64,000 nt of DNA, from the NCBI GenBank assembly GCA_013388635.1, contig JACAEX010000048.1, positions 26,999 through 90,998 of the forward strand, read 5' to 3'. A model generated the notes under the pieces. That model ran no database searches and was not told where the DNA came from. It worked only from the letters and a program-made list of their open reading frames with translations. The stretch comes from Syntrophaceae bacterium (GTDB lineage: Bacteria > Desulfobacterota > BSN033 > UBA1163). Both the position numbers and the translations under genes were made by a program. Of this stretch, positions 6,724-51,618 are shown piece by piece (the stretch's first letter is position 1; each line of letters opens with the position of its first letter).

Positions 6724-7389
6724 ATGAGGAGGTCTCCGATGGATCTGACCAAGGCAATTCTTGAAAGAAGAAGCATCCGGGCTTTCAGACCCGATCCAAT
6801 TCCCAGAGAGAAGATTGAAGAGATACTAAGGCTATCGATCCGTGCTCCTTCCGGGATCAACCTTCAGCCCTGGGAGTTTGTGATCGTGACCGGAGAGGAG
6901 AAAGAGAGGCTGAGTCGAACATTGATAAAGGCCTATCGTGAAAAAAAGATATCCTGCGGCCCTGATGCTGTGAGGCCATTGCCCAAGACATTCGGGAAAA
7001 GAGGCGCCAAAACCCTTGAGGGGATGAGGCCCTTTTTTGAAGAGATGAAGGTCAGCCCCGAGCAGTATATCAACGAAGGGAGCTGTCAATTTTACGGAGC
7101 TCCTGTGGTGATCCTGATCTGCCTTGATGATGCCTTTTCAAAAAGCCGACTGCTGGACATCGGTGCACTCTTAGGATATCTCGTCTTAGCTGCCCATGAA
7201 TCTGGATTGGGGACCTGCCCGATCGGCCTGATCACGGCCTATGAAGAAGAGATCAAAGACCTGCTCAACATCCCGGATAATAAGAGGGTGGTGATTGGAC
7301 TGGCCTTAGGTCATCCTGATTGGGAAAGCCCGATCAACCGCTTCAAGTCTGACAGAGAGGATCTTGATAATATGGTCAGATGGGTTTGA
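6724..7389 (+). CDS. Nitroreductase family protein
   Basis: ILERRSIRAFRPDPIPREKIEEILRLSIRAPSGINLQPWEFVIVTG. Confidence 0.9.
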   Translation: MRRSPMDLTKAILERRSIRAFRPDPIPREKIEEILRLSIRAPSGINLQPWEFVIVTGEEKERLSRTLIKAYREKKISCGPDAVRPLPKTFGKRGAKTLEGMRPFFEEMKVSPEQYINEGSCQFYGAPVVILICLDDAFSKSRLLDIGALLGYLVLAAHESGLGTCPIGLITAYEEEIKDLLNIPDNKRVVIGLALGHPDWESPINRFKSDREDLDNMVRWV

Positions 7390-7573
7390 ACGAGCGGTAC
7401 CTGGACATCTCCCAGATGACACAGCGGGTTCTGAACTCACAGTAAAGCTTTGGATCAAGGCACTCACAGCAGTCACCGAGGTTCAGGCATTCACAGCATT
7501 CCTGGCAGAAGCCGGCCTTATGTTTGTAACAGATCCCAATCGCTTCCCGATCCGGGTGGTTTCTGCATTTCAT
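7376..7573 (-). CDS. Small cysteine-rich putative zinc-binding protein (B-box-like N-terminus)
   Basis: 65 aa with 11 Cys: MKCRNHPDREAIGICYKHKAGFCQECCECLNLGDCCECL. Confidence 0.6.
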   Translation of the reverse strand: MKCRNHPDREAIGICYKHKAGFCQECCECLNLGDCCECLDPKLYCEFRTRCVIWEMSRYRSFKPI

Positions 7574-8286
7574 CGCTTTTCGACTTCAACTCGCATCTTC
7601 TTGAACCGTTTTGAAACAGGACGTTCCCGGAGCAGGATATAGGTCGCTCCTGCACCTCCGTCACAGGGCCTTGCGCTTGAATAGGCAACGACCCACTTGC
7701 GCCATGTCCCGTGGGTCAGCCAGTCGATCACCTTCTTCTTCAGAACCGGCTCGGAAGGCGAAGAACGACCCCGACCATGGATTACCAAGACCCCCCTCTT
7801 CCCATTGGTCACAGCCCACCTCAGGAACTCTTCAAAAATTTCCTTTGCATCGTCAACCCGCAGACCATGAAGATCGATATGGGCCTGGATAGAGTATTCT
7901 CCTTGGTGGAGACGCCTTGCCACCGATGGATGGACATGGTAGCCTGTGCCTTCAACGTATTCCGGTGTTTCAGAAATATCAAAACCCTTTCCGTGCCTCA
8001 CAAGGTCTATCAGCCTCCTCAATGCCTCAGCATCCTCTCTATTCTCCTGGCTCCAGGGTCGTTCGGTCCGGCAGATTCTTCTCACACGTTTATCCTTCGA
8101 TATACGTCTCACGCCCTCCATCGCCTTCCTGAAAAGTTCTTCCGGAGATTGAGAGTCCTGTTGGTTGCGGTCTTCCTCGCGAGAATCATGCCGCTCAGGT
8201 AAAGAGAGGAAGCCCTTTTCGAGCAAGGCCTTCAGATCCTCGAAAGAGGTCAAGAGCAGGGAAGGTTTTTGGGATTCCACTGTCAA
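7570..8286 (-). CDS. Smr-domain (MutS2-type) protein
   Basis: IDLHGLRVDDAKEIFEEFLRWAVTNGKRGVLVIHGRG...GGAGATYILLR. Confidence 0.88.
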   Translation of the reverse strand: MTVESQKPSLLLTSFEDLKALLEKGFLSLPERHDSREEDRNQQDSQSPEELFRKAMEGVRRISKDKRVRRICRTERPWSQENREDAEALRRLIDLVRHGKGFDISETPEYVEGTGYHVHPSVARRLHQGEYSIQAHIDLHGLRVDDAKEIFEEFLRWAVTNGKRGVLVIHGRGRSSPSEPVLKKKVIDWLTHGTWRKWVVAYSSARPCDGGAGATYILLRERPVSKRFKKMRVEVEKR

Positions 8287-41452: not shown

Positions 41453-41866
41453 TCAAAAGCGAGATCCTTCTTCTCTCACCTTCCTTCCAAATGCAATCAA
41501 CTGGGACCCTAAATCCTCAGCCTCTCCAATCAGATCGTCAAATTCTTCCTTGCCAATATAACCATCGTCCAAAATCAAATCCAAACAACATGCCACCTCT
41601 TCCAACGAAGTCTCAGAATTATTCAGATATTTGCTGAATTCAATATCCGAAAGTTTATTCGACCCCTCCGCAATATTCAAACAAATCGAATCCGAAGCAC
41701 GAGACATCTGATCCCTCAATAAGTATCTCTCACTTTCAGGGAGCTTCCTGGCCAATTGTCTGATTTTTCTCCGAAATGCCATAGCCGCCTGATAAACGGG
41801 CCATTGCCTAAATCGAAATAATGATCTTCTCTGTCTTCTGTTCATCGTCCACGGTTCACTGTTCAT
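41453..41866 (-). CDS. Four-helix-bundle protein (23S rRNA IVP/S23-like, TIGR02436-type)
   Basis: RDQMSRASDSICLNIAEGSNKLSDIEFSKYLNNSETSLEEVACCLDLILDDGYI; start codon probably internal to the listed ORF. Confidence 0.88.
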   Translation of the reverse strand: MNSEPWTMNRRQRRSLFRFRQWPVYQAAMAFRRKIRQLARKLPESERYLLRDQMSRASDSICLNIAEGSNKLSDIEFSKYLNNSETSLEEVACCLDLILDDGYIGKEEFDDLIGEAEDLGSQLIAFGRKVREEGSRF

Positions 41867-41898
41867 AGTGCTTCTGCCAATCCCTTATTCATCAGGTC
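41839..41898 (+). repeat. 60-bp direct repeat, copy 1
   Basis: TGTTCATCGTCCACGGTTCACTGTTCATAGTGCTTCTGCCAATCCCTTATTCATCAGGTC, identical to 41969-42028. Confidence 0.9.
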
Positions 41899-41968
41899 GT
41901 CCCATTACGATGAACCGTAAACTATGAACCATGAACCTTAAAGACAAAAAAACCATCTCTGCTTCTTT

Positions 41969-42028
41969 TGTTCATCGTCCACGGTTCACTGTTCATAGTG
42001 CTTCTGCCAATCCCTTATTCATCAGGTC
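41969..42028 (+). repeat. 60-bp direct repeat, copy 2
   Basis: Identical to 41839-41898. Confidence 0.9.
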
Positions 42029-42149
42029 TCATTTCCTCACCTATTAAAGGAAAAGCAGAGCCAGTGCCGATACCGGTTGTCGCAATCCCTTATTGATCGG
42101 GTCTCACTTTCTCACTGCGGTGAAGAAGTTAATAAGCACTGGACTCCCT

Positions 42150-42998
42150 CTAGGAGGTTCGCATTTTCCATAGTTTATTCAACTCATCTCGATGCAGACT
42201 ATAAATGAAGTCAGGTACAGGAGGTGTGTCCATGATGAGACAGTCGTACTCGTGCACGATTCGTAACACATCCTCCAGTGTGTACTGGGTGGTTTTCAAA
42301 TATTCCAACTCGTTATCCAAGTCTCGGACCTGTGCCGAACGCTCGCGGAACAAACGGCACCAAGAGTAGAATCCCGAGGTAATAAGTGAAAGGACAACGG
42401 CAATAATCACACGAGCGAGAAGGTCGCTGCCTTTCAGCCACGGCGTAAAAGCGACAGAATAAAGCACAAGCGCCACACAGATGAGGCCTCCAATCGTGAT
42501 CCCCAAAGCCCACCTTGCCGCATGTTGCATGAGGCGATGCGTCCAAAAGAATGACTCCTGTGAACATTCGAGGAGCCTTTTTGGACCAGGGGGGGCTTCG
42601 CTTGCAAACCACCTCTCAGTTCCTGTTGTTCCCCGCGCCTTTGTTAGGGATTTTTTGCTGAACCGTTGAAAAAACTCGGTTAGCTTTTTCTTGGGGATAG
42701 GCCACCCGAGTGCTTCATTCATCACGTATGCCCTACGTGCTTCCTCGGCAAGCCCATAGCTTTTCTTGTAAGCTCCGGTGAGGATCCACGCGATTATCCC
42801 CAAAACCAACAAGAACAGGGCGAATAGGGATGTCCAATGAGCTGTTAGCAGATAGGTGCCCAAAACGCCTCCTATCGATATGAACATTTGAATTGCGATA
42901 CTGACGTACAAGAGAAATTTGGCTCGGGAGTACTCAACTCTTAACATTACCAACAAGTGCTTTACCTCTGTCGGACCTACATTCATACAACCCGCCAC
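42150..42998 (-). CDS. Four-TM membrane protein, S-4TM-like putative pore-forming effector
   Basis: Two TM pairs (FLLYVSIAIQMFISIGGVLGTYLL / LFALFLLVLGIIAWILTGAY and WALGITIGGLICVALVLYSVAF / VIIAVVLSLITSGFYSW) separated by a cytosolic segment; last gene of the RAMP operon. Confidence 0.6.
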   Translation of the reverse strand: MAGCMNVGPTEVKHLLVMLRVEYSRAKFLLYVSIAIQMFISIGGVLGTYLLTAHWTSLFALFLLVLGIIAWILTGAYKKSYGLAEEARRAYVMNEALGWPIPKKKLTEFFQRFSKKSLTKARGTTGTERWFASEAPPGPKRLLECSQESFFWTHRLMQHAARWALGITIGGLICVALVLYSVAFTPWLKGSDLLARVIIAVVLSLITSGFYSWCRLFRERSAQVRDLDNELEYLKTTQYTLEDVLRIVHEYDCLIMDTPPVPDFIYSLHRDELNKLWKMRTS

Positions 42999-43023
42999 CT
43001 GTAATACCCTACATGAACCCCTT

Positions 43024-44520
43024 CTATAAGCACCGCTTCATGATTTCTCTGTACCCCTTTGCGGTTTCCTGGTATATCTCGAAATGCAAGGCGCAGCGTC
43101 GGCCTTTCTTGTACAGTAGTCTAGCCAGATCTTTCGCTGCTGCCTCACCAATTCTTACTTCCTTGCCGTTTGACAAGGCATTGTAAATGTCCCCTTCCGA
43201 AGCGAGGTCTTCAAGCTGAACAGTAGGTTGAAAGCCACCAGGTCCGAACGGCGGATACGTAAAAATTAATTTGCTTTGTTCATCGTAAGTCAGAATTCTA
43301 GCAAGTTTTTCGAGACCAGGCCAGTCGAGATAGTTCGCGAATCCAAGATTGGTCAGTTTTTCCTTATCCCATGCCACAGAGAACAGTTTTTTGGACTCTT
43401 CTTCAAGAACATTCTCTCCACTAAATACTTGACCGGCCACATTCCGCACTGTACCTTTGCCCCATATAAACTCCATCGTACCATAACCATACTGTTTACC
43501 ATAACCTATCTTGTGTTTGATTTTGGTACCAGGGAAAAGAAGCAGCAAGAAGAGACGCATCAACGGTTTTGGGACATCTTCAAAGTAGATTCGGAAAGAT
43601 TCCGACATTGATCCTGGGGGAAGAACTTCTACCGGGAAGCAGTACACAGGATGCCCTTTCCTGGTCGGCCATTTGTTTGATTGATAATACGCAACACATT
43701 TGACTGGATCTTGGTGATAGTAGAATTTCCTCCCTCGATATCCAGCGCCTACAAACTCTGGCACCATTTTTGGCCCAACTCTTGTCTCAACTTTGCGCAA
43801 TCGAATTGAGTGTGCCTTTTGGTACCACCAACTTGAAGCACTGGGTTTCGCCCCACCCATAAAGGCGGCGTCCCGAATATCTGGAAATTGATATCTATTG
43901 CTTATTATGACATTCGATGGGCTTATAAAGGCATCTTCGAAACTCAGACGTCCTTTGAGTGCATTCCCCTCTGCTAATACATAGCCAAAAAGAAAAGAAC
44001 ACAGGTCTATTCGGCCGATAGCCCCATCAGGACCTGGTTGTAGTAATTTGTCATTTGGTATCGCCGGAGGCAAATTAGGGTCAATCTCCCCTTTTAGAAG
44101 AAGTTCGGGAATCTTCTCATCAGCCCCATTAGCTTGAAACCCAATGTGACGATATCCGAATTTTTTTGCGTAATACGGTGTAGCCTGAGACACCCAGCTA
44201 TTTGTGGCCGCTTCGAGAAACGACCTAAGCATACCCCTCACACTCGATGACGGAATGCACGGTCGACCTGCCCTCCTGTGAAAAAGACTTTTCTCAATGA
44301 TAAAGTCTTTCTTCAGTTTTCCGTCCTTCGTAGGATCTTGGGACGCGCTACCTTGGGCAGGTTGTTCACCAACCACATGCAAGGGTGTGAGGGCTTTGAT
44401 ACGGAGTTCTATGAAACCTGAGATCGGATCACCTGTACTATGCCATTCGGCAGCCGTTTTCAAAGCAACCGGTTCAACAGCAAACGGGACAAAATCGAAA
44501 GGATTAGGATTATGCTCCAT
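43024..44520 (-). CDS. RAMP-superfamily (Cas7/Cas5-like) CRISPR-associated protein, TIGR03986-like
   Basis: PSSSVRGMLRSFLEA and glycine-rich KHKIGYGKQYGYGTMEF. Confidence 0.8.
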   Translation of the reverse strand: MEHNPNPFDFVPFAVEPVALKTAAEWHSTGDPISGFIELRIKALTPLHVVGEQPAQGSASQDPTKDGKLKKDFIIEKSLFHRRAGRPCIPSSSVRGMLRSFLEAATNSWVSQATPYYAKKFGYRHIGFQANGADEKIPELLLKGEIDPNLPPAIPNDKLLQPGPDGAIGRIDLCSFLFGYVLAEGNALKGRLSFEDAFISPSNVIISNRYQFPDIRDAAFMGGAKPSASSWWYQKAHSIRLRKVETRVGPKMVPEFVGAGYRGRKFYYHQDPVKCVAYYQSNKWPTRKGHPVYCFPVEVLPPGSMSESFRIYFEDVPKPLMRLFLLLLFPGTKIKHKIGYGKQYGYGTMEFIWGKGTVRNVAGQVFSGENVLEEESKKLFSVAWDKEKLTNLGFANYLDWPGLEKLARILTYDEQSKLIFTYPPFGPGGFQPTVQLEDLASEGDIYNALSNGKEVRIGEAAAKDLARLLYKKGRRCALHFEIYQETAKGYREIMKRCL

Positions 44521-44529
44521 GCTTCACCT

Positions 44530-45567
44530 CTACTGAGTGCGAATTTCTATCTCTCCTATCTTGGACAACTTGTTGGGCGCTATGCTGAAAGAACTCCAAA
44601 TCCCAGAGAATAGAGTTTCCTCAAGGATTTGGTTGGCAAGCTCTTCTTTTACAGCCCACTCCAGTTTTGTCCTCCATGGAGAACTTGGCCCCACATGAAG
44701 CGCGTAACTACTGTTCACAAAATCGCAGCGCCCGCGACCTTGGCTGCCAAGTGCACCGAAACGGATAAACCCGTCTGAGATATCATGTTCCCATTTTATT
44801 ATTAAGTCTATATCCTGAGACTTTGGATTCAGTACATAGAACTTGACGGTCATGGTCTGCCCCGGAGAGAGCTCAACAAATGTGTGGAGCCCACCTTCTT
44901 TTGATGATTGCGATATTCGGTCGAGAGGATTCCGTATGGTCAGCTGCCTCCCCAGGTTTCCAGGAGCAGATTGTTCTTCGCTTCCAGTCAGTAAACTTCC
45001 GATCACGTCAAGGCCTACAGACCCTCCCGTCAACCCAATTCTTCCTTCCATCTTGAACCTTCCTGACCAAGTCAATTCCGCCTCTTCGTCGATTGCGAGA
45101 TCGAACGCACAGCCAAAAAGATCAAGCACTTGAGACCAGCCACTCTCTGCGGAATCCAGTGCCGCCCGGGCTCGTTGCAGGATTTCCTTAAGGTCTTCCT
45201 CTGTGAGTTTACCTTTCTTTGGCAGTTCAAATGCGTCTCTTATAGACTCTTGCACAAGATTCTTAATACTCCACTGGCGGAGGGAGCCACGAATTGAACT
45301 GGCTGGCACGGAATATTCCGCCACCAATGAACCGTCTGTCACACGGAAACTGTAGTTAAAATCACCCACCTGGTTCCAATCATCGCCCTCCTCGGTTAGC
45401 CAGTTGAATTTAACTTGTTTCCCACGTCCTTTACCCAGACTGGGGTCATTCTGTTGCCAGAAGCACTGATGGCTGTGGCGAATGTAAAGGGGAGTTACTA
45501 ATTTCAAATTCCACAGCACGCAGAGGATGCTGTGGACTCCTTCCTTGTAGGGTTTGAAACTGTTCAT
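44530..45567 (-). CDS. RAMP-superfamily CRISPR-associated protein
   Basis: LVTPLYIRHS, YSVPASSIRGSLRQW, FIRFGALGSQGRGRCDF. Confidence 0.78.
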   Translation of the reverse strand: MNSFKPYKEGVHSILCVLWNLKLVTPLYIRHSHQCFWQQNDPSLGKGRGKQVKFNWLTEEGDDWNQVGDFNYSFRVTDGSLVAEYSVPASSIRGSLRQWSIKNLVQESIRDAFELPKKGKLTEEDLKEILQRARAALDSAESGWSQVLDLFGCAFDLAIDEEAELTWSGRFKMEGRIGLTGGSVGLDVIGSLLTGSEEQSAPGNLGRQLTIRNPLDRISQSSKEGGLHTFVELSPGQTMTVKFYVLNPKSQDIDLIIKWEHDISDGFIRFGALGSQGRGRCDFVNSSYALHVGPSSPWRTKLEWAVKEELANQILEETLFSGIWSSFSIAPNKLSKIGEIEIRTQ

Positions 45568-46439
45568 AACACCCCTCCTACCAGTTCAGAAAAAGCATCT
45601 TTGAAGCGATTTATTAATTTCTGGTAATCTTTAACCTCTTTTAGTGCGTAGTATCCCCCATGGCTCTTTTCTATCGATTGCTTAATCCACTCGTTCAGGT
45701 CTTGCTTGTCAAGTTTGTAGATTGTTTTTGCCGAAAACTTCATCCGTCCGAACCCGCGTCCGCTCATTGCCCCCAATGTGAGTGGATAGATCTCAGAGTT
45801 TATCGCTTCCAAACCAAAGAACAACAGGCCGAGCTCCTCGTCATCAAGATTCTGACCTACCACATTCAACTCATATTGCATCCCGGCAGGCGCCACTTCA
45901 AAGGTGTAGAGTTTGCGTGCAGCGGCAGTTCCAGTTGCTGGATCAATCGCGACAGACTTTACGATATACGTGCATCGGTCAGGATTCCAACCTGCGCTCT
46001 CGTATCCGGGAGGCATTTGGATAGTCCTGTTGATTAAAGGGGCGTCCCAAAATTCGACCTTCCCTTCCGCAAATGGAGTACCTAACAGGCGTTCCAGCAT
46101 GCTTGCTTGGTTAAGCATATAATCAATTTGTTGCTGCTGGTTAAGGTCTTCCGGCCCTTCGAATTCCTTCGCGATCGTAGCACTGATGGGCTGAAAGACA
46201 TGTAACAGGTAGTGGCGAATGTTGCCCCGAATCGTACTACCAGGAATAATTGGCTTATTGGAGTAATCAACGCAGATCTCTGAAACTTTTACTGTCTCAG
46301 TTGGATCCGTATGCTCCTGACTAGTACTTAGAGGTTCCTCACGAACTAAACCGCTGCCAATATGCAGAGGTGTCAACGACTCAAGCACACCAACAACACG
46401 ATAGCGGTTTTCAAATGGATCACCCTTTAGCTTTACCAT
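45564..46439 (-). CDS. RAMP-superfamily protein, Csm3/Cas7-like
   Basis: LTPLHIGSGL, VDYSNKPIIPGSTIRGNIRHYLL, LLGTPFAEGKVEFWDAPL, MSGRGFGRMKF. Confidence 0.82.
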   Translation of the reverse strand: MVKLKGDPFENRYRVVGVLESLTPLHIGSGLVREEPLSTSQEHTDPTETVKVSEICVDYSNKPIIPGSTIRGNIRHYLLHVFQPISATIAKEFEGPEDLNQQQQIDYMLNQASMLERLLGTPFAEGKVEFWDAPLINRTIQMPPGYESAGWNPDRCTYIVKSVAIDPATGTAAARKLYTFEVAPAGMQYELNVVGQNLDDEELGLLFFGLEAINSEIYPLTLGAMSGRGFGRMKFSAKTIYKLDKQDLNEWIKQSIEKSHGGYYALKEVKDYQKLINRFKDAFSELVGGVL

Positions 46440-46469
46440 TCTTCTAACCTCCGTTTATCTTTATCGGGC

Positions 46470-48332
46470 TTAAACGAGCCCATATCCGGTGAGTAACCTT
46501 TTCCAGTGCCATTCGAGGTTCACGACAATTTCTCCGTACCCGTTGGTGGGTACAAAAGGAAATACCTGCCAGAGTTGATCTTCTTTTTGTTTGAACTTTT
46601 TCAACACCCACTCAGGAACGGGCAGACCATTTAAATACCACGCCTGCAGCACCTGCTTTGCTGCCTCCTCATTCCGAGATCGGAACACAAAAGTACTCCC
46701 AGCCTTGGTCAGAAAATAAGGGTAGTAGTCAGTCCCAGGCGTGTAGCGGAAATGGAGATAACCCCCTTCAAGCTTTTGGGCTGCAAAGAACTGAGTGAGT
46801 TCCAATGATCCTCGCGATGTCCTATTCCAGAATTGCTCGTAAAGCTGGCGCAACTTATCTTTATCCTTTACACCACTCAAGTCTGATGGGTCAATTAAAG
46901 GCGCGTCGGTTTGGAGTACCAAGACTACTTTTCCATCCACCACAAATCCACTTTCATGAGTGGGAATCTTTTGCCACACAAGGTTCGGACCTAAATCAAC
47001 AACAATGCGACTATCGCCCTTCCCGACATATTCCCAACAGCTCATGACGGCCTCCATCAATTCCTTCGCTAGTGGCCGCTGTTTCTCTGGGGAGATATCG
47101 GGAAGAATTATGTTAGCTAACCACACGTTCTTCCTTTTCTCATCTTCAACATCTCCATTATACTCTGGAGGATAGGGCGATATGTACTGGTAGGTATAAA
47201 GGGATTCCTGTAGCGCGCTATGGGTACTTGGTTCAATGGCTGTTCGTGTTTTAGTTATTACACTAAGGTTTGCCCATCCAAACTCCCTTCGTATTGATGA
47301 ATCGTCCTTCCAATCAGGGGCGAAGGCTGGAGCCCTCTTTTTACTATCTAGTATGGGACCGTTTAACAATGCCACATCAGCAAATTGGTCCTTCTCGGAG
47401 GTCCCTACTATAGACAGTGGGATCGCTACTGGTCGTTTCGTCGCCTCGGTTGGTGCCGGAAAGGCATGCGTGAATCTGATTTGGCTGAAGAATTCTGTGA
47501 GATTCGGGAATCTCCGCGCAACCTGCGTATTATGTACCGAAATAGCATCACTGTCTGGGTATACACCACAGCAGCGGTTTAAATTTGCGGCGAGTGCACC
47601 CTTAAGTACCCGTCCACTCATGATATGTTCAGACTCGATAAAATTGGTCTTCCGACGCACTCCACCGATGAGAAGATCGTCAACCAGTTTTATAGATAAA
47701 TGAAAACATTTGAAGTCAGCAAGCCCCTCCTGAATAGCCCTTGGCTTCCTCGTATACTCCTCCAATGAAACTTCAGCCGATTTCAATCGACCGTATCCGA
47801 CGCCCTTATCCGCACCGAATCCCGCAATCCAACGAAAACCGGTTGAAATGTGCTGATGTACCATGTTGGGATCCAAACCTTCCACTGAGTTGAAATCAAT
47901 AATCCCTTCCCAGACCGAATCGCCTTCATTCTGAATAAGCTTTTCCTGGCATTGAAGGAAAGCCTCCTTTGCCGTCCTAGTCAGGGTATGTATGCTCACT
48001 CGTGTCAGGGTACTATCTGTGGGAACCACAGAACCATCTACAAGCTGAAAATCATTGAAATGTAAAATCCCGCGTTCCGGAAAATAGTACCCTTCGTCGT
48101 TCCTTTTGCCAAAGAACAGATCAAGATTCGGCGCATAATTCGGATTAGCTTTGCTCAGCTCTTTCATAGCCTCGAGCAGTTTGCCTTTTATGTGGCTTGC
48201 AAGAATCACGGGCCGTCCGAGTGAATCACGTTGAAATGTGCGACTGAGGCCACGCGTCGTGTCTCCGCTTCCTCCGTATAAAAACGGCCCTCTGATAACC
48301 AATCTGACCTTCAGCTTATAGTTCCTGCGCAT
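46470..48332 (-). CDS. Fused double-RAMP (Cas7-like) protein
   Basis: RAMP 1: GPFLYGGSGD...RDSLGRPVILASHIKGKLLEAM...GADKGVGYGRLK; RAMP 2: LVDDLLIGG...IMSGRVLKGALAANL; ATG at 48332 overlaps the Cas10-like stop. Confidence 0.75.
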   Translation of the reverse strand: MRRNYKLKVRLVIRGPFLYGGSGDTTRGLSRTFQRDSLGRPVILASHIKGKLLEAMKELSKANPNYAPNLDLFFGKRNDEGYYFPERGILHFNDFQLVDGSVVPTDSTLTRVSIHTLTRTAKEAFLQCQEKLIQNEGDSVWEGIIDFNSVEGLDPNMVHQHISTGFRWIAGFGADKGVGYGRLKSAEVSLEEYTRKPRAIQEGLADFKCFHLSIKLVDDLLIGGVRRKTNFIESEHIMSGRVLKGALAANLNRCCGVYPDSDAISVHNTQVARRFPNLTEFFSQIRFTHAFPAPTEATKRPVAIPLSIVGTSEKDQFADVALLNGPILDSKKRAPAFAPDWKDDSSIRREFGWANLSVITKTRTAIEPSTHSALQESLYTYQYISPYPPEYNGDVEDEKRKNVWLANIILPDISPEKQRPLAKELMEAVMSCWEYVGKGDSRIVVDLGPNLVWQKIPTHESGFVVDGKVVLVLQTDAPLIDPSDLSGVKDKDKLRQLYEQFWNRTSRGSLELTQFFAAQKLEGGYLHFRYTPGTDYYPYFLTKAGSTFVFRSRNEEAAKQVLQAWYLNGLPVPEWVLKKFKQKEDQLWQVFPFVPTNGYGEIVVNLEWHWKRLLTGYGLV

Positions 48333-49782
48333 GATCGGCCTCCTTAAGATAGTCCCAAAGGTCGGCGATAACATACCATCTTATGGGATTGCCTGATAAT
48401 AACCTTTCAACGGCAGCTTGAGTTTCTTGCCTTACAGACGAGGAAACAAGTTCCCATGCACGAGCCAACTCTACGTTCAGTTTCTCGTGGTCACCCTTCT
48501 GCACTGCAGCAACAAGCTTGTAAACTTTGCTCCGAGGAAAATTCTGTCGAAGAGTCAGCATATCGCTCTCGAACTGTTTCATTTCGGTCGCTACTAATAT
48601 TAATTCCCCTGGCGTGGCAGGCCTGTGATATTTGTTGAGAATGGTGTTTACATCTCTGGTAACTTGATCAAATGATTCCATGGCAAGATAAGCAAATCTG
48701 TTTGACTTCGTATCAAGCTTATCTATTTCCTCTGGTACTTGCCCTTTTGCAATTTCACATAAGTCTTGAGCAATCCTTCGAATCTGCAAGATGGGAGCAC
48801 TCGCATGGCAGAGGACAAGACCAGCTGAGTGGGTCAACTGTATTCCATGAAATTCAGCTCCTATTGTGGCTTCGTAGTAAAGAGAGAGCGTACGCCATGC
48901 TTGCCATGCAGGAACGACAATGTCGATCTCGTCACCGCCCCAGAGTAGCACCTCCAGCCGGACTGTACCTGAATCTGTCCGAAAATTAGCGCCATGAGGC
49001 CCAACTGCGTAACCGAGGATTTTTGCCAATGCGCCTAAGCGCACTACGTTTTGAACATATGAGTGATACTCGTAATATTTCTGCGGGTCTATACACTTCT
49101 GGTCTCTTATCCTCCCAAAACGATTCCCGTCTATGTGGATCAGACCGATCCTTCCATTCAGTACACCGGCGTTGACGTCTTGAGCAAGTTCCTGAAGATC
49201 ATTCGTGAATAATAGTGGGTGAGCCACACTAATCTTAGCGTCCTCAAGTACTCTGCCCGCGAGACCTTGTCTAAGACTCACCCCCTTTTTTTTCCTTTCA
49301 TAAACAGCTTCCGACACATTTTTTACACTTCCCCCTACCGTCCATTTCTGCACGGCTGGCCTCACCCCATCAATTTCGCATGGCCCTCTTGTTTGCCTCA
49401 TATCTGGAAGAACTACCGTTAGCTGCTGTAACTGCCGCCAACGATTCTTTGCAATCAGCGTCTGGTTCATTTCCGTGAATGTTCTTCCTTCTGTCTTCTC
49501 AAGCCAATCCACGACAAATGTGCCGAGGTGTCCGGTTTTTGCCTCTAAAGCGCTCAGGACACCGGTACGTATCTCTTCGGCCTCTTTTTCTCCTGTTGCC
49601 TCGAACTTAAAAAGACCGACGCTTGCACCACACGCGATTTCTTCGATTCCTAACCTGTTCCAATCTTGTTTGAAAGCGTCAGCAATAAGAAAACTTCCTC
49701 CACGAATTGTACTAATGTCCTCCGTGTCGTAGACGACGTCATCGAAGTTCACGGCTTCTGCGCGCAGGTAGTATGTTCTCAT
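48316..49782 (-). CDS. Divergent Cas10-like palm-domain protein (GGDE), no recognised HD domain
   Basis: IGLIHIDGNRFGRI and RLEVLLWGGDEIDIVVPAWQAWRTL palm motifs; operonic with RAMPs. Confidence 0.75.
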   Translation of the reverse strand: MRTYYLRAEAVNFDDVVYDTEDISTIRGGSFLIADAFKQDWNRLGIEEIACGASVGLFKFEATGEKEAEEIRTGVLSALEAKTGHLGTFVVDWLEKTEGRTFTEMNQTLIAKNRWRQLQQLTVVLPDMRQTRGPCEIDGVRPAVQKWTVGGSVKNVSEAVYERKKKGVSLRQGLAGRVLEDAKISVAHPLLFTNDLQELAQDVNAGVLNGRIGLIHIDGNRFGRIRDQKCIDPQKYYEYHSYVQNVVRLGALAKILGYAVGPHGANFRTDSGTVRLEVLLWGGDEIDIVVPAWQAWRTLSLYYEATIGAEFHGIQLTHSAGLVLCHASAPILQIRRIAQDLCEIAKGQVPEEIDKLDTKSNRFAYLAMESFDQVTRDVNTILNKYHRPATPGELILVATEMKQFESDMLTLRQNFPRSKVYKLVAAVQKGDHEKLNVELARAWELVSSSVRQETQAAVERLLSGNPIRWYVIADLWDYLKEADHAQEL

Positions 49783-49990: not shown

Positions 49991-50019
49991 ATAAAAGAAA
50001 TTCAAAATTCAAGATTCAA
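49991..50019 (+). repeat. 29-bp direct repeat, copy 1, part of (ATTCAAA)n-type tract
   Basis: ATAAAAGAAATTCAAAATTCAAGATTCAA, identical to 50603-50631. Confidence 0.85.
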
Positions 50020-50118
50020 GATTCAAAATTCAAGACTAAAATCTAAAAAGAAATTCAAGATTCGAGATTGAAAATTCAAAACTCAAGAATCAAAAATCAA
50101 CATAAAAAACTTCAAGAT

Positions 50119-50595
50119 TTAGGAGCCATTTTTATTGAATTTTGAATGTTGGATATTGAGTTGACGAGTCATCTCCTCGACCCGATCCCTCATACTCCTG
50201 TACTCCTTTTTGAACTTCTCGCCTTTCAGTCGTGACCCTTTCAGATAATCAATCAGCCCGCTCAACTGACCGGACACGTCTTTGCACAATGATAAACCCT
50301 TATTAAACTCTCCTATTGTGATGTACTTTTGGTCGAGGGCAACATAAAATTGTGTTCTCACCTCCCCTGAAGAACCTTTCGAGATATAAAGAAACTGAAT
50401 GAATTCGCTGTTCGAACCCCGCTCAAATCCCTCCGAAATGTTAAACATGGCAGACGTGGAAGCACGCCTGATTTGATCCACCAGGCTAAAATCTCTACAG
50501 AATGGCTCTTTCTTCGTAAGATCGTAAACATATTGGACGAGCTCCCTTGCCTTCTGCCAGACGGGCAATTCCTCGAAGGTTTTAGGCATATCCAC
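50119..50595 (-). CDS. Four-helix-bundle protein (23S rRNA IVP/S23-like)
   Basis: PKTFEELPVWQKARELVQYVYDLTKKEPFCRDFSLVDQIRRASTSAMFNISEGFERGSNSEFIQFLYISKGSSGEVRTQ. Confidence 0.92.
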   Translation of the reverse strand: MDMPKTFEELPVWQKARELVQYVYDLTKKEPFCRDFSLVDQIRRASTSAMFNISEGFERGSNSEFIQFLYISKGSSGEVRTQFYVALDQKYITIGEFNKGLSLCKDVSGQLSGLIDYLKGSRLKGEKFKKEYRSMRDRVEEMTRQLNIQHSKFNKNGS

Positions 50596-50602
50596 CTCCT
50601 TA

Positions 50603-50631
50603 ATAAAAGAAATTCAAAATTCAAGATTCAA
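50603..50631 (+). repeat. 29-bp direct repeat, copy 2
   Basis: Identical to 49991-50019. Confidence 0.85.
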
Positions 50632-50634
50632 AAT

Positions 50635-51618
50635 TCAAAATTTAATCTCATATTTTCCGAGACCGAAGCTGGTGCCTTTGCCTACGTGGATATATTCGCC
50701 AACAAGTAAAAAAGGGATAAACTCTTTAACAACTCCTTCAAATGTAACTGAACCGATAAAACCACCCATTTTCATTTTAGTGTCCTGACGGTTAGAATAA
50801 CGCTCCCAGTCAGACCAGTGAAGATCCTCTTTTTGAAGCTTTACACCCTTTGCCTTCTCAATCAATCCTCTAAAATCGAGAGGCAACTCTTCTCCACAAT
50901 GGAAGTAGGAAAGCAGAGAAATACGCCTGATGAGATTCCGGATCAGGATGTGAAATTCGAGTTTCGGAGATAACCTACCATCAAACTTTAACCTAGTTGG
51001 GGTCAAAAATTTAAGGTGAAGGGTTAAAGGAGAAAGGTTAAAGGAAGCAAGATCATCGATGTTTAAGATTCTGAAATTATTCTTGAGGATTTTGTCTTTT
51101 CCGGAATAAATCACTGTGCTCATTTGATCTTTTTCTGTTTCTTGCCTTTCACCTTTCACCATTGTCCTTTGGCCTACACTTTCTAAGCTGTATCTCCCTT
51201 TGCCTTTTCCGATTCCCATCCTTCCAAGCTCATCAAAGGTGTAAATGAAGTAAGGAAGGTAATCGATCGATCTACCGATCAGCGTCAATTCAAAAAGTAG
51301 CGTTTCCCCTTCCCTGTAGATCCTTTTTTCTTCTAAGGGAGGGGTGATGACAAAGGGATGCGGGGCAAATGGGTATTTTCTCATCTTTGAGGTATCCGAC
51401 GGAGGTGGGGTTTCAAAAACATAGGAATAGGCGCATTTGCCTTTGAGGATGCAGGACTCGCAAATTTTCTCTCTGTTGACACAGACGACCTTTTTGAAGG
51501 CATGGCCAAAGGCACCCCGAAAGGTTGAGCCTTTATAAGCAGGCAAGTTCATGCAATCCAATGTCTTCAGGATAAACTGAAACTTTGTGAATTTGAAATT
51601 ACTGAGTGGAGCTTCCAT
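50635..51618 (-). CDS. cas6: Cas6-type CRISPR pre-crRNA processing endoribonuclease (RAMP)
   Basis: AYKGSTFRGAFGHAFKKVVC, CESCILKGKCAYSYVFETP, GIGKGKGRYSL, C-terminal VGEYIHVGKGTSFGLGKYEI. Confidence 0.85.
   Translation of the reverse strand: MEAPLSNFKFTKFQFILKTLDCMNLPAYKGSTFRGAFGHAFKKVVCVNREKICESCILKGKCAYSYVFETPPPSDTSKMRKYPFAPHPFVITPPLEEKRIYREGETLLFELTLIGRSIDYLPYFIYTFDELGRMGIGKGKGRYSLESVGQRTMVKGERQETEKDQMSTVIYSGKDKILKNNFRILNIDDLASFNLSPLTLHLKFLTPTRLKFDGRLSPKLEFHILIRNLIRRISLLSYFHCGEELPLDFRGLIEKAKGVKLQKEDLHWSDWERYSNRQDTKMKMGGFIGSVTFEGVVKEFIPFLLVGEYIHVGKGTSFGLGKYEIKF

What the first reader, a model, noticed from the sequence alone, without database searches (positions are those of the whole stretch)
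42150..49782. Divergent type III CRISPR-like operon: Cas10-like + RAMP-RAMP fusion + three RAMPs + 4-TM protein
Seen: six same-strand genes with overlaps or very short gaps (49782-48316, 48332-46470, 46439-45564, 45567-44530, 44520-43024, 42998-42150). At least five RAMP modules have the characteristic (P)xSSxRG/KG and glycine-rich loops, and one protein has a Cas10-like palm. No Csm2/Cmr5-like small subunit, no Csm6/CARF nuclease, no Cas1/Cas2 and no HD domain is recognisable. Established: type III effectors pair Cas10 with several RAMPs. Inference: the subunit inventory fits none of the standard III-A to III-F layouts I know, so this may be a derived type III variant whose effector is a membrane protein.
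Basis: partly seen in the sequence, partly recalled or inferred. Interest (0 to 1): 0.88.

Follow-up and report, generated by a model that had tools for sequence, protein, structure and literature searches.

The report
CRISPR operon with CBASS-type membrane effector
This is a real RNA-targeting CRISPR immune operon of the known type III-D family that carries, in place of its relatives' usual membrane effector (CorA), a four-helix membrane protein otherwise seen in a different bacterial alarm system (CBASS), suggesting that the two systems share and swap their cell-stopping weapons.

Summary
The six-gene operon is real and sits where stated. It is not an unplaceable layout: it is type III-D, from the branch with a Cas7-Cas5 (Csx10) fusion, related to solved complexes 9WXH and Synechocystis III-Dv. 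Cas10 has no HD domain but keeps invariant DGN and WGGDE motifs, so it should make a nucleotide signal.

The unusual part is the last gene, an S-4TM protein of the CBASS 4TM effector type. I recovered 50 related loci. The window falls in a seven-member clade (support 100/97) with unfused Cas7s. All six members whose operon end is visible carry S-4TM (five) or SLATT (one); none has CorA or its DHH phosphodiesterase, present in 34 of 45 other loci. In one relative S-4TM lies between Cas7 and cas6-RT-cas1. The closest non-CRISPR S-4TMs found sit directly behind CD-NTase cyclases.

Best explanation: RNA-triggered Cas10 signalling disrupts the membrane through S-4TM, with no CARF/SAVED sensor. The messenger and pore activity are inferred. 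I found no report of S-4TM or SLATT in type III CRISPR, but searched only open-access text. New variant of a known kind.

The parts
50635..51618 (-). cas6, crRNA-processing endoribonuclease (327 aa)
   Evidence: PADLOC Cas6 9e-113, Pfam PF10040 2e-22; about 70-76% identical to a second cas6 on contig C77
50119..50595 (-). four-helix 23S-IVP protein with AAATTCA-type repeats, lying between cas6 and cas10; probably an insertion, not part of the system
   Evidence: PF05635 3.5e-34; repeats
48316..49782 (-). cas10, no HD domain; DGN218-220 and WGGDE281-285 catalytic motifs
46470..48332 (-). Cas7-Cas5 (Csx10) fusion, 620 aa
   Evidence: PDLC01408 2e-29, 9wxh_C 1e-54, AlphaFold2 model matching 8s9u_A
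45564..46439 (-). Cas7 subunit, Csx7-like (291 aa)
   Evidence: TIGR02581 4e-22 below its cut-off, 9wxh_D 2e-26, invariant Asp166
44530..45567 (-). Cas7 subunit (345 aa), counterpart of the second half of Cas7-2x
   Evidence: PF03787 2e-5; clade profile best hit III-Dv Cas7-2x 2e-4; invariant Asp216
43024..44520 (-). Cas7 subunit of the TIGR03986 family (498 aa)
   Evidence: TIGR03986 1e-29 below its cut-off, PDLC01407 4e-30
42150..42998 (-). S-4TM (CBASS 4TM-type) membrane effector, 282 aa
   Evidence: PDLC00724 2.6e-26, PF18159 1.2e-5, just under its cut-off, 4 TM segments, conserved in the clade
42079..42115 (-). CRISPR repeat 1 (37 nt)
   Evidence: 28/37 identical to the C77 array repeat, the best of all window positions; last 8 nt identical
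42041..42078 (-). spacer (38 nt)
42004..42040 (-). degenerate CRISPR repeat 2 (37 nt)
   Evidence: 25/37 identical to the C77 repeat, second best of all window positions
41453..41866 (-). second four-helix 23S-IVP gene with flanking repeats, lying in the CRISPR remnant; probably an insertion
   Evidence: PF05635 1.4e-27, repeats D3/D4/D6

Best explanation
A type III-D CRISPR-Cas effector operon that signals to a CBASS-type membrane effector. Cas6-processed crRNA is held by a complex of Cas10, the Cas7-Cas5 fusion and three separate Cas7 subunits. Binding of complementary foreign RNA activates the Cas10 palm (no HD nuclease), which makes a nucleotide second messenger. S-4TM senses it directly, without a CARF or SAVED domain, and permeabilises the inner membrane, causing dormancy or death; the Cas7 subunits cleave the bound RNA and switch Cas10 off. 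Shown: gene identities, conserved catalytic motifs, operon linkage, and clade-wide conservation of an S-4TM or SLATT gene in loci that lack the CorA gene of their relatives. Inferred from known families: crRNA-guided RNA sensing and messenger synthesis. Inferred only: that S-4TM binds this messenger, which nucleotide it is, and that S-4TM forms a pore.
For: Core subunits match III-D profiles, sequences and folds. DGN and WGGDE are invariant in the clade and nearly so in 43 loci. S-4TM or SLATT is in the operon of all six clade members whose operon end is visible, with 4-bp overlaps in L037 and L042, and between Cas7 and cas6-RT-cas1 in L040. CorA/DHH is in 0 of 7 clade loci but 34 of 45 others. 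The nearest non-CRISPR S-4TMs found sit directly behind CD-NTase cyclases, so the family normally works with a nucleotide synthase. Precedents for direct sensing by CARF-less membrane effectors (CorA, Csx23) and for CBASS effectors used by type III (NucC, TIR-SAVED) are in PMC11229360.
Against: No experiment exists. S-4TM has no solved homologue and no recognised ligand pocket. The window's CRISPR array is a one-spacer remnant interrupted by an IVP element, so this particular locus may be partly decayed or depend on the C77 array. The S-4TM subfamily differs between clade members, so it is not a strictly inherited partner. The clade has only seven known members, two on short contigs with doubtful labels.
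Confidence: 0.68

Rival explanations
1. An ordinary type III-D system in which S-4TM is a chance neighbour (a CBASS remnant or passenger gene in a defence island); immunity comes from RNA cleavage or from effectors elsewhere in the genome.
For: S-4TM genes usually belong to CBASS, and defence genes cluster. The same genome has Csm6 and a CARF protein at its III-A locus that could respond to cyclic oligoadenylate.
Against: No CD-NTase gene accompanies it; the gene is co-directional within 26 bp, and in L040 it is enclosed by cas genes. S-4TM/SLATT recurs in six of six assessable clade loci against 1 of 45 others, and Pfam S_4TM was found in 3 of 49 host genomes, only at this operon.
Confidence: 0.14
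2. The messenger is the same as in the CorA loci (SAM-AMP or a similar conjugate) and S-4TM is simply an alternative receptor for it.
For: The sister clade and most relatives carry CorA; B. fragilis III-B CorA senses SAM-AMP (PMC10600005).
Against: The DHH phosphodiesterase that accompanies CorA in part of the other loci is absent from the clade. The residue two before the catalytic DGN is Tyr in most other Cas10s but His in 6 of 7 clade members. The messenger of III-D CorA is itself unsettled (PMC12669027).
Confidence: 0.1
3. Inhibitory signalling: Cas10 keeps S-4TM silent with its product, and loss of the product triggers the membrane effector, as reported for the mini-Cas10 mCpol with 2TM-beta.
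For: A Cas10-related enzyme restrains a CBASS-like membrane effector by c-di-AMP in that system (PMC12657230).
Against: That enzyme is a stand-alone mini-Cas10; here Cas10 sits with a full crRNA-guided complex, whose relatives are expected to be switched on by target RNA.
Confidence: 0.05

Closest known systems
Complex of PDB 9WXH/9WXI/9WXJ (Cas10, Cas7-Cas5-like chain, TIGR03986 chain; III-D2-like by my reading, no paper found)
   Same: Cas10 and the fusion match end to end (1e-54, 8e-41); the WGGDE and DGN motifs are the same
   Different: Its Cas7 domains are fused in one 1235-aa chain; here they are three separate genes. Its accessory genes are not known to me
Synechocystis type III-Dv complex (8S9T-8S9X, PMC11026444)
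   Same: Cas10 with an intact palm, Cas7-Cas5 fusion fold, Cas7-2x and Cas7-insertion homologues
   Different: No Csx19, Cas7-2x split into two genes, shorter fusion (620 against 768 residues); III-Dv has Csm6 and Csx1 accessory genes instead of S-4TM
CorA-associated type III systems (PMC10600005; III-D CorA loci in PMC12669027)
   Same: HD-less Cas10 plus a CARF-less membrane effector in one operon; the sister clade in my tree is of this kind
   Different: CorA and DHH absent; S-4TM/SLATT present instead
CBASS operons with S-4TM (L034 Nonomuraea, L035 Deinococcus)
   Same: Same effector family (28% and 24% identity), encoded directly behind a nucleotide synthase
   Different: The synthase is a CD-NTase there and Cas10 here; a crRNA-guided trigger replaces the CBASS trigger
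NucC and TIR-SAVED in type III CRISPR
   Same: Precedent for CBASS effectors used by type III CRISPR (PMC11229360, PMC12669027)
   Different: Those are a nuclease and a TIR enzyme with known cA3 sensing; this is a 4-TM membrane protein with no recognised sensor domain

Membership tests
Type III CRISPR-Cas | Cas10 large subunit with palm/cyclase motifs | tested here: met
   PADLOC 1e-26, 9wxh_B 8e-41, invariant DGN and WGGDE
Type III CRISPR-Cas | Multiple RAMP (Cas7/Cas5) subunits | tested here: met
   Five RAMP modules
Type III CRISPR-Cas | Association with CRISPR repeats or cas6 | tested here: met
   cas6 upstream, repeat-spacer-repeat remnant downstream, related array on C77
Subtype III-D | Csx10-type Cas5 | tested here: met
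   PDLC01408 III-D 2e-29 full length; Csx10 model TIGR02674 6e-6 but below its cut-off; fold 8s9u_A
Subtype III-D | Cas10 without HD domain (the rule, not absolute) | tested here: met
   About 25 residues precede the palm RGG motif; HD in only 3% of III-D Cas10s (PMC11229360)
Type III-Dv (Synechocystis variant) | Cas7-2x fusion | tested here: not met
   Separate 291- and 345-aa genes
Type III-Dv (Synechocystis variant) | Csx19 in the operon | tested here: not met
   All operon genes are assigned to other families and no further ORF lies in it
Type III-Dv (Synechocystis variant) | C-terminal Cas11 domain on the Cas7-Cas5 fusion | tested here: inconclusive
   620 against 768 residues and the alignment ends with Cas5-like sequence, but the domain was not tested directly
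III-D2 / 9WXH-type | Cas7 domains fused with the TIGR03986 protein | tested here: not met
   Three separate genes
Subtype III-E | Single Cas7-11 effector without Cas10 | tested here: not met
   cas10 present; no fused effector
Subtype III-I | Cas10 lacking the polymerase domain, with Cas7-11i | tested here: not met
   Palm motifs intact; Cas6i model only 0.04
CorA / SAM-AMP type III systems | CorA effector with a phosphodiesterase or lyase | tested here: not met
   No CorA or DHH match in the window or its clade even at E=0.1
S-4TM (CBASS 4TM) effectors | Profile match and four TM helices in a 2+2 layout | tested here: met
   PDLC00724 2.6e-26; PF18159 25.3 bits against a cut-off of 26.9; hydropathy
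CBASS | CD-NTase cyclase next to the effector | tested here: not met
   No cyclase among the operon genes; the only nucleotide-making enzyme is Cas10
Type III signalling effector | Activated by the Cas10 product | not testable with these tools
   Needs biochemistry

The most novel reading that the evidence does not exclude
A distinct lineage of type III-D CRISPR has exchanged the CorA/DHH signalling module for CBASS membrane effectors (S-4TM, SLATT), so Cas10 makes a messenger that a CARF-less 4-TM protein senses directly. S-4TM/SLATT would be an unreported class of type III effector, and the unknown ligand of a poorly characterised effector family would come within reach.
Probability: 0.6. 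Interest if true: 0.75.

Novelty: new variant of a known kind. Interest (0 to 1): 0.63.

Why it matters
Type III cyclic-oligoadenylate sensors are described as almost exclusively CARF or SAVED domains (PMC12669027), with few exceptions among effectors (CorA, Csx23, NucC, Cam2). A clade that uses S-4TM/SLATT would extend effector trading between CBASS and CRISPR to membrane proteins. It gives a natural comparison (sister clades with CorA or with S-4TM) for finding which Cas10 residues set the messenger, and a route to the ligand and mechanism of S-4TM, for which I found no solved structure. The unfused-Cas7 layout is also a less-fused comparator for the III-D to III-E fusion series.

Tried and rejected
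(1) A new subtype outside III-A to III-F: rejected, since the core subunits fall in III-D. (2) III-E or III-I: rejected, as Cas10 is present with intact palm motifs. (3) The 23S-IVP gene beside cas10 as a hidden Cas11: rejected; it is a clear IVP four-helix protein with its own repeats, a similar gene lies on the other flank, and its Cas11 match is only 0.016. (4) Viral contigs for the fusion and phages for S-4TM: no relatives. (5) More clade members by sampling 400 genomes of the L039 phylum and 247 of the L037 phylum: none beyond the seeds. (6) Foldseek of the S-4TM model: no significant match. (7) Mapping onto this Cas10 the acidic residues that mark the B. fragilis SAM-AMP synthase: not possible, no alignable sequence in hand. 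(9) The 2015 nucleotide-centric-systems paper and the 2020 CARF paper: not held.
Full report
Observation. In operon order they are Cas10 (488 aa), a Cas7-Cas5 fusion (620 aa), three RAMP proteins (291, 345, 498 aa) and a 282-aa membrane protein. Profiles support each: Cas10 1e-26, Csx10/III-D fusion 2e-29, Csx7-like RAMP 4e-22, RAMP 2e-5, TIGR03986 1e-29, 4TM effector 3e-26. A cas6 lies just upstream at 50635-51618 (PADLOC 9e-113). Just after the last gene there is a repeat-spacer-repeat remnant: GTGAGAAAGTGAGACCCGATCAATAAGGGATTGCGAC, a 38-nt spacer, and a degenerate second repeat. These two repeats are the two best matches anywhere in the window (28 and 25 of 37 bases) to the 37-nt repeat of a seven-unit array on contig C77 of the same genome, and the last 8 nt of the first repeat, the expected crRNA tag, are identical. 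C77 also carries a complete type III-A locus with cas1, cas2, Csm6 and CARF genes, and a cas6 about 70-76% identical to the window's, so crRNA supply and adaptation in trans are plausible (inference).

What the core is. It is type III-D. The fusion matches chain C of PDB 9WXH over its whole length (1e-54), Cas10 matches chain B of the same entry (8e-41), and the first Cas7 matches the 1235-aa TIGR03986 chain D (2e-26). An AlphaFold2 model of the fusion (27 sequences, pLDDT 82) best matches the Synechocystis III-Dv Cas7-Cas5-Cas11 chain (Foldseek 9.5e-24), and the profile of the 345-aa protein best matches III-Dv Cas7-2x. The layout differs from III-Dv (no Csx19, Cas7-2x split) and from the 9WXH type (Cas7s not fused). 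The fusion has 620 residues, close to 9wxh_C (635), while the III-Dv chain has about 768; I infer that the C-terminal Cas11 domain of III-Dv is absent from it, but did not test this directly.

Comparative set. A phylum search gave eight relatives of the fusion, seven of them in loci with the same cas gene order, and a scan of the GTDB genome collection gave 50 loci. A maximum-likelihood tree of 45 fusions places the window in a seven-member clade (support 100/97) with two Chlorobiaceae (L037, L038), two Chloroflexota (L039, L040) and two MAG contigs labelled Methanothrix (L041) and Nanosynbacter (L042). The last two are on short contigs and their labels may be binning errors. All seven keep the Cas7s as separate genes, as do L043 and L044 in the sister clade (L043, L044, L046).

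The effector. In L040, L041 and L042 the gene after the last Cas7 is a strong S_4TM match (Pfam 2e-52, 5e-53, 7e-52). In L039 a divergent S-4TM (PDLC00724 1e-16) lies just before cas10. In L037 the gene that overlaps the last Cas7 by 4 bp is a SLATT-type 2TM effector (6e-58). The L038 contig ends too early to tell. In L040 the order is Cas7, S-4TM, Cas6, RT, Cas1, with repeats further on, and in L042 CRISPR repeats flank the operon, so the membrane gene lies inside the CRISPR locus. No clade member has CorA or the DHH phosphodiesterase, while 34 of the 45 other loci have one or the other (Fisher p=2e-4), including the whole sister clade; S-4TM occurs in 5 of 7 clade loci against 1 of 45 others (p=5e-5; CorA identity). 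These p values ignore relatedness, and several contigs outside the clade are truncated. Pfam S_4TM was found in 3 of 49 host genomes, each time at the III-D operon, and PDLC00724 in only 2 of 395 phylum genomes, the window's included. A further S-4TM (L058, Acidobacteriota, PDLC00724 6e-41) sits at the end of a III-D operon outside the clade. The S-4TM subfamilies differ between loci, which suggests repeated exchange.

What S-4TM is elsewhere. The best matches in the plasmid collection are Nonomuraea and Deinococcus proteins (28% and 24% identity). In both, the gene immediately upstream is a CD-NTase cyclase (PADLOC 7e-43 and 2e-56), that is, CBASS. In the window operon no CD-NTase was found; the only nucleotide-making enzyme is Cas10.

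Cas10. The residues needed for messenger synthesis are kept: DGN at 218-220 and WGGDE at 281-285 are invariant in the clade and nearly so over 43 loci. Only about 25 residues precede the palm RGG motif, so there is no room for an HD domain. The residue two before DGN is His in 6 of 7 clade members (Gln in L042) and Tyr in most other Cas10s. L058, with S-4TM outside the clade, has Tyr, so this is a lead and not a rule.

Mechanism. By the established behaviour of type III systems, crRNA-guided binding of foreign RNA should activate the palm, and the Cas7 subunits should cleave the RNA and end the signal; each separate Cas7 keeps an invariant Asp, though I did not map these onto catalytic residues. 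Membrane effectors without CARF are known for type III: CorA (SAM-AMP, PMC10600005) and Csx23 (cA4, PMC11014256, as summarised in PMC11229360). CBASS effectors used by type III are known too: NucC and TIR-SAVED (PMC11229360, PMC12669027). I therefore infer that S-4TM is the nucleotide-gated membrane effector here. Unproven are the messenger, direct binding and pore formation. The joint absence of CorA and DHH suggests, weakly, a messenger other than that of the CorA loci.

Novelty. Full-text searches for S-4TM or SLATT with type III CRISPR, and for S-4TM with CRISPR, found no paper in which the titles and abstracts point to this link; the words SLATT and 4TM do not occur in the 2024 type III effector survey or the 2025 classification. 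Only open-access papers were searched and supplements were not readable, so an earlier mention cannot be excluded. I rate it a new variant of a known kind: a known subtype, a known effector family, and an apparently unreported, clade-conserved pairing.

Noticed in passing
window 41453-42040 and 49998-50642: Two four-helix 23S-IVP genes with different flanking short repeats bracket the cas operon, one inside the CRISPR remnant and one between cas6 and cas10. Parts of the first one's repeat recur at three other contigs of the genome, so these look like mobile or repeat-targeting elements.
   Followed up: partly
L032 (own genome, contig C77) 3907-19878: A complete type III-A locus with Csm6 ring nuclease, a TIGR02710 CARF protein, Cas1, two Cas2-like genes, a cas6 read in two ORFs, and a seven-repeat array that runs off the contig end.
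   Followed up: partly
L058 7622-9653: Outside the clade, a III-D operon ends with a pentapeptide-repeat protein followed by S-4TM, which suggests an independent acquisition.
   Followed up: partly
L014 10196-10483, L016 378-704, L047, L048, L054, L055: A small (about 95-120 aa) protein with a weak WDGH-domain match (1e-4) follows the fused TIGR03986 gene in several CorA-type loci; its role is unknown.
   Followed up: no
Cas10 of L037-L042 and the window, residue 216 in the window: The residue two before the catalytic DGN is His (Gln in L042) in the S-4TM/SLATT clade and Tyr in most other loci.
   Followed up: partly
L040 7100-7985: The S-4TM gene appears split by a frameshift (matches at 7100-7231 and 7263-7949); sequencing error and decay cannot be told apart here.
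   Followed up: no
L041, L042: Two clade members are labelled Methanothrix and Nanosynbacter but lie on 13-15 kb contigs, have closely related operons, and may be binning errors.
   Followed up: no
L052 (Desulfonema magnum chromosome): The species whose III-E and III-I systems serve as references in PMC12669027 also carries a CorA-type III-D locus of this family.
   Followed up: no
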